From Citrus sinensis (Eukaryota > Streptophyta > Magnoliopsida > Sapindales > Rutaceae), in contig NC_068561.1 of assembly GCF_022201045.2 (NCBI RefSeq), positions 24,372,501 through 24,436,500 of the forward strand: 64,000 nt of DNA. Direction: 5' to 3'. The translations under genes and the position numbers were made by a program. Of the stretch, positions 5,301-62,907 are shown one piece after another. The notes beneath the pieces were generated by a model. It ran no database searches. It had not been told where the DNA came from and saw only the letters and a program-made list of their open reading frames with translations. Within the stretch, counting starts at the first letter, position 1, and every line of letters starts with the position of its first letter.

Positions 5301-5935
5301 CCACTAATTTGGCTGGCAACGCCCTGAACGCTCCGCCAAAGAGAGTAGTTCAAATAATCACTAGTGACACTATCAGGAAAACCTTCGGGTAGCATGAATT
5401 GCACAAAGAGTTCTCTACACTCATCCCATAATTTATTAACAGATAACAGCGACGATAACGAAGCATTACTTGCACTTGCAACAACAAATGCATCTTTTGT
5501 GAAATCAGGAATCAGCTTGGTCCGCTTGCTTCCCTTTACTTCCCAAACGGCGTCGTATTCCTTATTGCCGTCGTCCTCAGAACTTGTTGCAGTTCTTGCA
5601 ATTGCTGTGGCCACTTGCAAGTGACAGAAACAATACAAAAGCGATGGTACAAACAAGAGAAGTGAATAAAAAGACCCTGAAGAATCATCATCACCACCAT
5701 TCCCGCCGTGCCACCACCAAGAACCAGAGGGGTTATTGTTATTGTTGTTGTTGTTGTTGTTGCCGCTGCTACCGCCATTGCCAATGGAGCAAGAGAGCAA
5801 AGGGAAGTGAAATTTATCGAATGCTTTAGTGTTAATAACAAAATTTTGTTTCCAATACGGAAAATGTAATGGGGATTGTGGGGATGGTGACAGCCCAATT
5901 CCATTGAGGTACAAGGCCCTGCTAACGCACCCCAT
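2328..5935 (-). CDS. RUS1: Root UVB sensitive 1-type protein (DUF647), chloroplast
   Basis: Seven coding exons, all GT-AG and in phase: 5285-5935, 4902-5177, 4509-4565, 4204-4402, 3737-3852, 2839-3015, 2328-2612; 586 aa, near the roughly 600 aa of Arabidopsis RUS1. The N-terminal 160 residues are plastid-transit-like, then low complexity with an Asn run (about residues 58-68) and a Gly/Trp patch ([12 protein letters not shown]). The DUF647/RUS domain starts around residue 190 with [19 protein letters not shown] and contains [29 protein letters not shown], a Gly/Ala stretch ([17 protein letters not shown]) and [16 protein letters not shown]. The C-terminal 200 residues include the RUS tail, ending [12 protein letters not shown]1 is known to be needed for early seedling development and UV-B response and works with RUS2; its biochemical activity is unsettled. 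Start is the ATG at 5933-5935. An in-frame ATG upstream at 6077-6079 is treated as 5' UTR because the added 48 residues are GA-repeat-encoded. RUS1 rather than another RUS paralogue is inferred from the long transit-like N-terminus. Confidence 0.88.
5733..5762. repeat. Trinucleotide microsatellite coding poly-Asn in RUS1
   Basis: (TTG/TTA)n on the plus strand, read as AAC/AAT codons in RUS1 exon 1, giving a run of ten Asn between GNGGSSG and PSGSWWW. It falls in the low-complexity linker before the RUS domain, where length variation should be tolerated. Confidence 0.9.
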
Positions 5936-5994
5936 TATTTTTCTTCTTCTTTTTTTATTTAACGATGTTTCTGCAAGTGAAGCGTACGCTGCAA

Positions 5995-6708: not shown

Positions 6709-9120
6709 ATGGAGGAGGTCTCTGATATGGAAGAAGAAAAAGGATTGGAAGAACGGCCAAAATCAAGAGACGTAAGGCGTTATTACTGTGATTACTGTGG
6801 GATTTGCAGGTCCAAGAAGTCTCTCATTCTTTCCCACATCGCCTCTCACCATAAGGTTTGATTCTCTTGCCTTTTTTGTTTAATGAAAAAAATTTGTTTC
6901 ACATAATTAGGAATTTTAGATTCTTAAGGGATTATTGAAATTCAACTTTTTGCTCATATGGTTTTGTATTTTGACTTCAATTGTAATTTGCTGTCTAAGC
7001 TTCTGTGAAAACCGTAGTATTTGACGCTTATCTGAGAAACCAATTTTGTCTTTTACCCAAAAAAGGTGTTTTTCTTTTTAATAAAAATCTGGGTTCAATT
7101 ATTCAATTGCTTTGCACTTTAATTGAGCGTTAGTGAGTCAAGTTTCAAGGGTAACAACGTTTGCTGCTAGAATTTAGTGGGTGGCTCGAGTGTCCAACTT
7201 GAATTCTCTGAGCTGCTTGGGAATTTCTGATGATGAACAAACAATTACACTAAGTACAGTTGTGCCCGTCTATCTTATAGTTTTTTATTTTATTGATTCT
7301 TTTCTATCAGGAAGATGAGGAAAGGGTTGATGGGGATGGGGAAACAAAAGGAGTGCAATGCAATACATGCGAGGAATGTGGTGCTAGTTTCAAGAAACCT
7401 GCTTACTTGAAACAACACATGCTGAGTCATTTGCTTGAGGTATTTCAGAATAATTGTTGGGCATCTTTCCTTTTCCACAGAGTTCTTTTTCAAGAGTACA
7501 TTCATTGTGGTCTTTTTCCTGTTACATGGCAAAATTCCTCTGCTGATGTCTTGTTTTATAATCCTTCATCAAGAAAAGAACTTTCAATACCTAGTTAGTG
7601 GGATCCTTTTCATATTGTTTGTGTCAATTAAAGATCAATAATTTTGCAGGAATTTTGGTTTTTGAGAAATCTGAAAAAAACCATGGAATTTGTAGCGTGA
7701 AGCATTGGATCCCTCACAGAGAACTCCAAAATGCAAGAGGTTGCAATTTTAAACTTGAATGGACCAGTATCAGGTTGGGAGACCTCCTGAGAAGCTCCAT
7801 CAAGTAAGCCTCATTCACGCAATCTTCCGAATCGAGGTTTGGATATGTATGCTTGCACTTAGGTTTGTCAACTATGCAGTGGATCACTGCTGATTCATTT
7901 GATTTGCTGCAGAGGCCATTTCGCTGCTCGGCTGATGATTGCCATGCCAGCTATAGAAGAAAAGATCACTTGACTCGGCATCTATTACGGCATCAAGGAA
8001 AATTATTTAAGTGTCCAATAGAAAACTGCAATCGTGAATTTACCATTCAGGGCAATATGAAAAGACATGTGAAAGAACTTCATCATGAGGGCACCACATC
8101 CACTGATTCTGGTGATCAGAAGCAGTACATCTGTCAGGAAATTGGGTGTGGAAAAGTATTCAAATATGCCTCCAAGTTGCGGCAACACGAGGATTCTCAT
8201 GGTCTGTTGCTTAAATTCCAAATTAATATGAAATTTTGTAACATAATATTTGTTATAGTGAATGTTTGAAGTGTTGTTTGAGTTGAAGTTGGCAGTCTGC
8301 AAGCTCTGACCAACATGTTTGTGTCCACAGTTAATCTAGACTCTGTGGAGGCATTTTGTTCTGAACCTGGATGTATGAAGTATTTTACGAATAAACAATG
8401 CCTAGAGGCCCACATCAGGTCATGCCACCAATATATTCCATGTGAGATATGTGGGTCCATGCAGTTGAAAAAGAATATCAAGCGACATGTCCGCACACAT
8501 GAAGCCAGAGATTTATCTGAGAGAATTAAATGCCAATTCAAGGGCTGCCTCCTCTCATTCTCAACTGTAAGAAGCAGCTACCTTTGAGTTCCCTCTGCTG
8601 CCACCTCCACACCCGCCCCACTTCTTCTTTTGGCCTGAATTGATTTTCTTGCATTATATATGTTACTTATTTAATATCTTTCCACCATTGGTCTATCTGT
8701 TTGCAGAACTCAAACCTCCGGCAGCATGTGAAAGCTGTGCACTATGAAATCAAGCCTTTTGCCTGTAGCTTTTTTGGTTGTGGCATGAGATTTGCCTTCA
8801 AGCATGTGAGAGATAACCATGAGAAATCTGGGCACCATGTTTATTCTTCTGTGAGTGTACTGTGAAAATAATGTCAAGACAGCTTTCATTTTTTTCCAAT
8901 ATTTTCTCATTTAGCTTGGTAAAACATCATGATTAGCACTGATAAAAACCATACTCTGTTTTTGCTTTGGTATCAGGGGGATTTTGTAGAGTCGGATGAG
9001 CGGTTCAGGTCAAGGGAGAGGGGTGGGCGAAAGAGGAAATGTCCAACCGTGGAAATGCTGATACGAAAGAGGGTTTCGCTGCCGAGTCCCACCCAATCTT
9101 GTAATCTTTACGAAGATTGA
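6709..9120 (+). CDS. TFIIIA: Transcription factor IIIA, nine C2H2 zinc fingers
   Basis: Coding exons when the cassette exon is skipped: 6709-6855, 7311-7439, 7913-8201, 8331-8566, 8707-8850, 8977-9120; 362 aa, all joints in phase. TFIIIA binds the internal control region of 5S rRNA genes to recruit TFIIIB/Pol III, and also binds 5S rRNA. Nine C2H2 fingers can be read: YYCDYCGICRSKKSL, NTCEECGASFKKPAYL, FRCSADDCHASYRRKDHL, FKCPIENCNREFTIQGNM, YICQEIGCGKVFKYASKL, AFCSEPGCMKYFTNKQCL, IPCEICGSMQLKKNI, IKCQFKGCLLSFSTNSNL and FACSFFGCGMRFAFKHV. The tail has a basic nuclear-localisation-like patch (RSRERGGRKRKCP). The C-C-H-H pairs are intact in the fingers checked. A 154-nt alternative exon between exons 2 and 3 is a 5S rRNA mimic and decides whether protein is made. 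Plant TFIIIA is usually about 370-410 aa, so this one is slightly short. Identification is firm because fingers and mimic exon agree. Confidence 0.95.
7650..7803 (+). ncRNA. P5SM: 5S rRNA-mimic cassette exon of TFIIIA
   Basis: Alternative exon with acceptor AG at 7648-7649 and donor GT at 7804-7805. Two stretches copy plant 5S rRNA: 7707-7727 (GGATCCC..CA..GAACTCC, the helix II-III/loop B region) and 7766-7797 (AGTA.CAGG.TGGGAGACCTCCTG.GAAG, the helix IV-V/loop E region). The central part between them has diverged. The exon is 154 nt, not a multiple of three, and has an in-frame TGA at 7698-7700 when joined to exon 2, so inclusion should send the mRNA to nonsense-mediated decay. Established knowledge: the land-plant P5SM is recognised by ribosomal protein L5, which promotes skipping. 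It is not a 5S rRNA gene, since it lacks the full 120-nt sequence and a Pol III terminator context. Confidence 0.93.
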
Positions 9121-10047: not shown

Positions 10048-13848
<3,801 letters not shown>

Positions 13849-61771: not shown

Positions 61772-62907
61772 ATGATGAGAATGATGGGTTGGGGAGCAAC
61801 TACAGAACAAGGATGGAGAAAGGGTCCTTGGACTCCTGAAGAAGATAAGTTGCTTACCGAACATGTCAATTTGCTTGGAGAAGGAAGATGGAGTTCCGTG
61901 GCCCGGTCTGCAGGTAATTAATCAGAATTTTAATAGTTATAAGAAAGCATTACTAATTGAGTGGAGACCTGACTTTACTCTTGACATGCTTTAATTAACT
62001 AATTAAGAATCATACGTTATTATATATGTATATGGCTAGCTAGCAACTTTTACTTTGTTCAGTGATTTAATTTTATTCGTATGTACGCGTGCATATGTTC
62101 TTAGGTTTGAATAGGAGTGGAAAGAGCTGCAGGCTGAGATGGGTGAATTATTTGAGGCCTGGTCTCAAAAGAGGCCAACTAACACCTCAAGAGGAAGGCA
62201 TCATTATTGAATTGCATGCTTTGTGGGGTAACAAGTAATGCATCTGTCTCTTTATTCTCTCTACAATAAATATACAAATACAAAAGTACACACACAAAAC
62301 GAAACAACAATAATAATAAATTGGTGTAATATAGTTTAATTTTATGGTGATTAGGCTTAGTCTAATTAATTATATGCATGAATACAGATGGTCGACTATT
62401 GCTAGATACTTGCCAGGGAGAACAGACAATGAGATAAAGAATTATTGGAGGACCCATTTCAAGAAGGAAAAATCTTCTCAGAAGCAAGAAAAGCGAAAGG
62501 CTCTACTTTTGAAACAAAAGCAACAACAGCAAAAGCAGCAGCAGCAACATGAAGATAATATGAATAGGGTTTCATCCAATGATGAGAAAACGATGAGTAC
62601 TGCAGAGCATGAGAAGCAGATGGCTTTCATGCAACCGGCGATGGCTATGGAGAATCAGAGCTGGCCAACTATGTATCAAGATATTGCATCTTGGCCGTCC
62701 GATCATCATCAGCCTGCAGTGATAGATGAATTAGGGTTGTGGGGTGGCCTGTGGACATTCGATGACACAAACGGCCGTGTTGACGCAAGCACTAACTGCA
62801 ACAAGATGGCTGCCGCCGTGCAGCAAAATCAGGCCGCAACTTTTGCTCTTGGAGGGGATTCAAGCAACTTCTGCAATGGAGGGTACATTTTTCAAGAAGG
62901 ATTTTGA
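61772..62907 (+). CDS. R2R3-MYB transcription factor (MYB27/48/59-like)
   Basis: Three exons: 61772-61913, 62105-62234, 62388-62907; 263 aa. R2 (about residues 15-67) reads [20 protein letters not shown] then [20 protein letters not shown] and [15 protein letters not shown]3 (about 68-118) reads [20 protein letters not shown] then [20 protein letters not shown]. Intron positions within R2 and R3 are the canonical R2R3 pattern. [10 protein letters not shown] and NYWRTHFKK resemble the AtMYB27 and MYB48/59 branch. After the MYB domain comes a basic, Gln-rich stretch ([15 protein letters not shown], about 129-143) and an acidic/aromatic C-terminus ([13 protein letters not shown]) that could act as an activation region. 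No EAR repressor motif (LxLxL or DLNxxP) seen. No bHLH-interaction signature ([DE]Lx2[RK]x3Lx6Lx3R) is evident. Target genes cannot be inferred. Confidence 0.93.

What the first reader, a model, noticed from the sequence alone, without database searches (positions are those of the whole stretch)
7650..7803. 5S rRNA-mimic (P5SM) cassette exon controls TFIIIA
A 154-nt alternative exon copies two parts of 5S rRNA inside the gene for the 5S rRNA transcription factor. It has an in-frame stop at 7698-7700 and a length that shifts the frame, so inclusion should destroy the mRNA. The L5-P5SM switch is known in land plants; this copy has a central region (about 7730-7765) that no longer resembles 5S rRNA, which defines the minimal mimic in this lineage.
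Basis: partly seen in the sequence, partly recalled or inferred. Interest (0 to 1): 0.8.

Follow-up and report, generated by a model that had tools for sequence, protein, structure and literature searches.

The report
5S-RNA-mimicking switch exon in TFIIIA
This is the well-known plant "suicide exon" that imitates 5S ribosomal RNA inside the gene for the factor that makes 5S RNA, letting the cell tune that factor by splicing; the copy here looks intact and ordinary.

Summary
A GT-AG-bounded 154-nt cassette exon at 7650-7803 sits between zinc fingers 2 and 3 of a nine-finger TFIIIA-type gene (6709-9120). Two blocks, 7702-7727 and 7762-7798, resemble this genome's own 5S rRNA: 0 of 3000 dinucleotide shuffles reach the combined score, and the exon is the best place in the window. 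The TGA at 7698-7700 and the frame shift are real. The reading as the L5-responsive P5SM exon fits anatomy and literature; splicing, L5 binding and RNA decay could not be tested. Two corrections. The central region lacks 5S sequence but is predicted to form the stems closing both arms, one reaching across the exon's 5' splice site; this is only suggestive (matched shuffles do as well in 5 of 300 and 19 of 400). One sequence cannot define a "minimal mimic". And inclusion need not only destroy the mRNA: an AUG at 7759 opens a 285-aa frame with fingers 3-9, the published TFIIIA-7ZF layout. Rfam gives only a weak 5S match (14.5 bits, cut-off 38). The switch is described across land plants, so interest is low.

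The parts
6709..6855 (+). TFIIIA coding exon 1 (start codon 6709)
   Evidence: translation; donor AAG|gtttga; genome protein search
7311..7439 (+). TFIIIA coding exon 2 (finger 2; donor GAG|gtattt)
7650..7803 (+). Cassette exon, 154 nt, 5S rRNA mimic (P5SM)
   Evidence: splice borders and frame; shuffle test; one match in own genome
7698..7700 (+). In-frame TGA stop ending the 108-aa two-finger frame when the exon is included
7702..7727 (+). 5S-like block 1 (helix III and loop C part, own 5S positions 25-47); loop region about 3 nt longer than in own 5S
7690..7746 (+). Predicted arm 1: stem 7690-7696/7740-7746 enclosing stem 7702-7709/7725-7734
   Evidence: depends on how much flank is folded
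7762..7798 (+). 5S-like block 2 (loop E, helix IV and part of helix V, own 5S positions 70-105)
   Evidence: two pairs of helix IV changed on both sides against own 5S
7753..7805 (+). Predicted arm 2: helix-V-like stem extended through 7801-7805, pairing the 5' splice site GU (7804-7805) with 7753-7754
   Evidence: suggestive only
7759..7761 (+). AUG inside the mimic opening a 285-aa frame (MDQYQVGRPPEKLHQ then fingers 3-9) when the exon is included
7913..8201 (+). TFIIIA next constitutive exon (starts before finger 3)
8331..8566 (+). TFIIIA coding exon
8707..8850 (+). TFIIIA coding exon
8977..9120 (+). TFIIIA last coding exon (stop TGA 9118-9120)

Best explanation
The exon is the P5SM 'suicide' cassette exon of a plant TFIIIA gene. 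Shown here: the gene layout, the 5S-like blocks, the stop and the frame shift. Taken from published work on other plants: ribosomal protein L5 binds the 5S-like structure in the pre-mRNA and the exon is skipped, giving nine-finger TFIIIA; without L5 the exon is included, the two-finger frame stops at 7698-7700, and full TFIIIA falls. My inference: 5S rRNA competes with the mimic for L5, so free L5 reports a shortage of 5S rRNA. The included mRNA may be decayed and/or yield a seven-finger protein from the AUG at 7759. A plausible but unproven step is that the loop E arm, closed by a stem reaching into the intron, hides the exon's 5' splice site.
For: Nine-finger protein on skipping and stop on inclusion. 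5S similarity far above shuffles. Both arms in the fold of 7690-7810: z -2.76, 1 of 200 shuffles as stable. Two of eight helix IV pairs changed on both sides relative to own 5S and still paired; when the partners are slid by 1-3 columns, none of the six versions keeps a both-side change and the share of paired cells falls from 93.8% to 25-64%. No second close copy of gene or exon found. Own 5S genes present. L5e-family exon pieces at two loci. The stop lies 772 nt upstream of the last exon junction, which suits decay. The same anatomy is reported for land plants, with L5-driven skipping (passages).
Against: No RNA-seq, binding or decay data. Rfam gives no significant match. The whole 154-nt exon folds only mildly better than shuffles (z -1.48, 17 of 200). 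Arm 1 is lost or weak in some fold contexts (outer stem in 7630-7830, both stems in 7600-7850). Shuffling the 3' letters reaches the covariation values in 106 of 500 cases, since only two distinct sequences exist. Helix II of 5S, named with loop C as the L5 site (PMC6164485 passages), is not kept as sequence. The PDB search puts other C2H2 proteins (ZNF568) above TFIIIA, so gene identity rests on finger number and exon context.
Confidence: 0.93

Rival explanations
1. The exon is mainly a protein switch: inclusion makes a functional seven-finger TFIIIA from the AUG at 7759 instead of, or besides, lowering TFIIIA.
For: A 285-aa frame with fingers 3-9 opens inside the exon, with the same letters around the AUG as the gene's own start (TGAATGGA at 7759 and 6709). 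A seven-finger protein was seen by immunoblot in A. thaliana and N. benthamiana and the authors argue it is translated from the inclusion mRNA (passages of PMC6164485).
Against: It lies 58 nt after a 108-aa frame, has T at -3, and a competing AUG at 7731 with A at -3 opens an overlapping 19-aa frame. Layat et al. are cited as ascribing the short protein to proteolysis.
Confidence: 0.3
2. A decayed relic: the 5S-like exon is no longer spliced or no longer binds L5 in this plant.
For: Weak Rfam score, no 5S resemblance in the centre, L5 binding untested, helix II not kept as sequence.
Against: Both splice borders, the stop and the frame shift are intact; the blocks kept hold loop C and loop E; both-side base changes keep helix IV (two distinct sequences only).
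Confidence: 0.05
3. Chance resemblance to 5S rRNA in an intron.
For: Block 1 alone is matched by 26 of 3000 shuffles.
Against: 0 of 3000 shuffles for the whole exon, best place in the window, colinear blocks, in the gene where this exon is expected.
Confidence: 0.01

Closest known systems
P5SM suicide exon of plant TFIIIA (Hammond et al. 2009; Fu et al. 2009, both known here only through citing papers)
   Same: Gene, position as a cassette after the second finger, 5S-like sequence, premature stop; reported as conserved in land plants (PMC5568362 and PMC8909551 passages).
   Different: Nothing shown to differ. The published consensus could not be read, so the central region could not be compared.
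TFIIIA-7ZF / TFIIIA-9ZF isoform pair (Nicotiana benthamiana, Arabidopsis; PMC6164485 passages)
   Same: Inclusion mRNA has a short two-finger frame followed by a seven-finger frame.
   Different: Whether the seven-finger protein is made in this plant is unknown; where its start codon lies in other plants was not stated in the passages seen.
HyP5SM engineered splicing cassette (PMC4538838 passages)
   Same: Stop-bearing exon retained by default, skipping induced by an L5 protein.
   Different: HyP5SM is engineered not to respond to dicot L5; this is a native exon.
5S rRNA (Rfam RF00001)
   Same: Helix III/loop C block and loop E/helix IV block.
   Different: No sequence match to 5S 1-24, 48-69 or 106-119 in the local alignment (helix I and helix II parts); 14.5 bits against a cut-off of 38.

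Membership tests
P5SM cassette exon | Lies in the TFIIIA gene between the exons for fingers 2 and 3 | tested here: met
P5SM cassette exon | Contains sequence resembling 5S rRNA | tested here: met
   0 of 3000 shuffles, best of 5806 stretches
P5SM cassette exon | Inclusion brings a premature stop; skipping restores the frame | tested here: met
P5SM cassette exon | Folds into 5S-like arms | tested here: inconclusive
   Helix-IV-like pairs at 0.87 or more in all six stretches at two temperatures, arm 1 context-dependent; too few sequences for covariation
P5SM cassette exon | Ribosomal protein L5 binds it and causes skipping | not testable with these tools
   L5e-family exon pieces exist at two loci; binding not testable
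P5SM cassette exon | Alternative splicing in vivo and decay of the inclusion form | not testable with these tools
   no RNA-seq
P5SM cassette exon | Agreement with the published P5SM consensus | not tested
   primary papers not held; no P5SM family among Rfam matches
5S rRNA (RF00001) | Score above the Rfam cut-off | tested here: not met
   14.5 bits against 38; it is a mimic, not a 5S gene
TFIIIA | Nine C2H2 zinc fingers | tested here: met
   nine non-overlapping pattern matches (relaxed pattern); Pfam zf-C2H2 74.3 bits, one stretch passing on its own; TFIIIA chains 1tf6, 8ffz and 1tf3 among PDB matches but not on top
TFIIIA-7ZF isoform | Seven-finger frame downstream of the stop in the inclusion mRNA | tested here: met
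   285-aa frame from 7759; protein not tested

The most novel reading that the evidence does not exclude
The mimic works as a direct lock on its own exon: its loop E arm is closed by a stem that runs through the exon-intron border, so a 5S-like fold stabilised by L5 hides the 5' splice site. The same stem also carries the start codon of the seven-finger protein, so one 5S-derived helix would control both splicing and the alternative protein start.
Probability: 0.25. Interest if true: 0.4.

Novelty: already known. Interest (0 to 1): 0.15.

Why it matters
It documents an apparently intact copy of a rare case in which a gene is regulated through an RNA mimic of the product it helps to make. It adds two testable anatomical points: a predicted lock on the 5' splice site, and a possible start codon for the seven-finger isoform inside the mimic. 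The switch itself is established in print.

Tried and rejected
Rfam scans at gathering level over the window and at E up to 10 on the exon with and without flanks: no P5SM family and only a weak 5S match. I cannot list the library, so whether a P5SM family exists in it is not known. The top sub-threshold match (mir-1299, minus strand, 18.8 bits, cut-off 89) was taken as chance.

Primary papers (Hammond 2009, Fu 2009, Barbazuk 2010) are not held, so the published consensus was not compared. Literature searches: 25 of 555 papers listed; 19 of 19; 39 of 39; 12 of 78; 10 of 1577. Searches were aimed at the splice-site lock and at the 7ZF start codon; the listings showed nothing on either, which does not mean they are unpublished. 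PMC10178017 was searched for six terms with no occurrence.

No plant relatives are in the collections offered, so no cross-species alignment of the exon was made. I made no search of the viral, phage, plasmid, E. coli or prokaryote collections, apart from the 14 control genomes that include by themselves. The 5S-like score of 30 near 62107 was looked at; the letters read by eye like an R2R3-MYB gene, so it was set aside. The bacterial promoter/terminator scan is not meaningful for a plant intron and was not used.

5' splice site pairing, results for and against: minimum pairing over the last 3 exon and first 2 intron bases is 0.92-0.94 with 60-200 nt flanks; 6 of 120 GU sites between 6829 and 9000 reach 0.9, this site being one of the six and donor 8567 another. 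A first shuffle control used a stretch in which the real value is only 0.83; 18 of 500 shuffles reached 0.9 and 29 of 500 reached 0.85. The matched control: in 7650-7850 (real 0.833) 19 of 400 shuffles do as well; in 7684-7923 (real 0.922) 5 of 300. Of the five other donors, one (8567) is paired as fully with 120 and 200 nt flanks, not with 60. Hence suggestive only.

Full report
What is there. The window belongs to a 299.7-Mb genome of 11 contigs (G000:C6:24372501-24436500). A gene on the plus strand, 6709-9120, has six constitutive coding exons with GT-AG introns. Joining them gives 362 aa with nine non-overlapping C2H2 patterns. A protein search of the genome gave eight matches: six are this gene's own exons and two are distant, at 33-35% identity (7 candidates scored). 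In the PDB it matches TFIIIA (1tf6, E 4.8e-18; 8ffz, E 3.5e-15) but ZNF568 ranks higher (119 matches, best 60 shown). I therefore call it TFIIIA on finger number together with the exon described below.

The cassette. Between the exons for fingers 2 and 3 lies 7650-7803, 154 nt, preceded by ttttgcag and followed by gtaagc. Inclusion adds a length not divisible by three and a TGA at 7698-7700, giving a 108-aa two-finger frame. A DNA search of the genome found only the exon itself; that search did not find the 5S genes either, so it rules out close copies only. The stop lies 772 nt upstream of the last exon junction, which suits nonsense-mediated decay.

The 5S resemblance. Own 5S genes were found on the same contig (47 scored matches of 6906 candidates) and one gives 112.7 bits with Rfam. 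Against it the exon has two colinear blocks, 7702-7727 (5S 25-47; 20 of 22 aligned bases identical) and 7762-7798 (5S 70-105; 28 of 36). Score 38; 0 of 3000 dinucleotide shuffles reach it (maximum 31). Fragment 7700-7736 alone is reached by 26 of 3000, fragment 7758-7803 by 0 of 3000. Of 5806 overlapping stretches in the window the exon is best. Rfam's 5S model sees only block 2, at 14.5 bits and E 1.2, below the cut-off of 38.

Structure. In the helix IV part, two of eight pairs differ from own 5S on both sides and still pair, one differs on one side, one is lost, four are unchanged. Sliding the partners by 1-3 columns removes every both-side change and lowers paired cells from 93.8% to 25-64%, but with two distinct sequences the shuffle control is weak (106 of 500). 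Folding 7690-7810 gives two arms (z -2.76, 1 of 200). The exon alone is unremarkable (z -1.48, 17 of 200). Over six stretches at two temperatures the helix-IV-like pairs hold throughout, and the pairs at the splice site hold in the five stretches that include it (7804 with 7754 at 0.93 or more, 7805 with 7753 at 0.73 or more). The outer stem of arm 1 varies from near 0 to 1 with the flank folded, and its inner stem falls to about 0.25 in one stretch.

The centre. But in the fold of 7690-7810, 7740-7746 closes arm 1 and 7753-7763 is the 5' strand of arm 2. Arm 2's stem continues through 7801-7805 and so pairs the GU of the exon's 5' splice site with 7753-7754. This degree of pairing is uncommon but not unique: 6 of 120 GU sites between 6829 and 9000 reach 0.9, including this one and the ordinary donor 8567, and matched shuffles do as well in 19 of 400 and 5 of 300 cases. 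I treat the splice-site lock as a hypothesis.

The second product. AUG 7759, within the helix-V-like stem, reads MDQYQVGRPPEKLHQ and continues in frame into fingers 3-9, 285 aa. This matches the published layout of TFIIIA-7ZF: a mini upstream frame with two fingers, then a seven-finger frame (passages of PMC6164485). The same paper says the origin of this isoform is debated. Here the AUG has T at -3, as does the gene's own start codon, and a competing AUG at 7731 has A at -3.

Literature seen. Passages only: PMC5568362, PMC8617911, PMC6164485, PMC4538838, PMC12218528, PMC8909551, PMC5972288, PMC12857756, PMC5423905. Between them they state that the TFIIIA exon mimicking 5S rRNA is conserved in land plants, that L5 binding leads to skipping, and that inclusion brings a premature stop and decay. 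PMC6164485 places L5 on helix II and loop C of 5S; loop C is kept here, helix II is not kept as sequence. The primary papers were not available. L5e-family exon pieces occur at two loci of this genome (six matches), so the trans factor is likely present. Helix and loop names given to blocks of the exon are my assignment, from the Rfam structure lines and general knowledge of 5S rRNA.

Verdict. The claim about a lineage-specific minimal mimic is not supported by one sequence, and "inclusion destroys the mRNA" is incomplete. This is an ordinary, apparently intact orthologue of a known switch.

Noticed in passing
window 10051-10143, minus strand: A 31-aa stretch matching the C-terminal end of CDC2/CDK kinases (best E 1.2e-5), part of a downstream neighbour on the opposite strand.
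   Followed up: partly
window about 5500-5936, minus strand: A divergent open frame with a run of asparagines, upstream of TFIIIA.
   Followed up: no
window about 62107-62230, plus strand: Letters that read by eye like part of an R2R3-MYB gene ([17 protein letters not shown]); gives a 5S-like score of 30, taken as chance.
   Followed up: partly
G000:C6:2506751-2528833: Tandem 5S rRNA genes about 500 bp apart on the same contig as TFIIIA, plus two copies further on (2657404, 2677877) that differ by one base inside the gene from the six array copies printed.
   Followed up: no
window 8567: Another TFIIIA donor site is predicted fully paired with 120- and 200-nt flanks but not with 60 nt.
   Followed up: no
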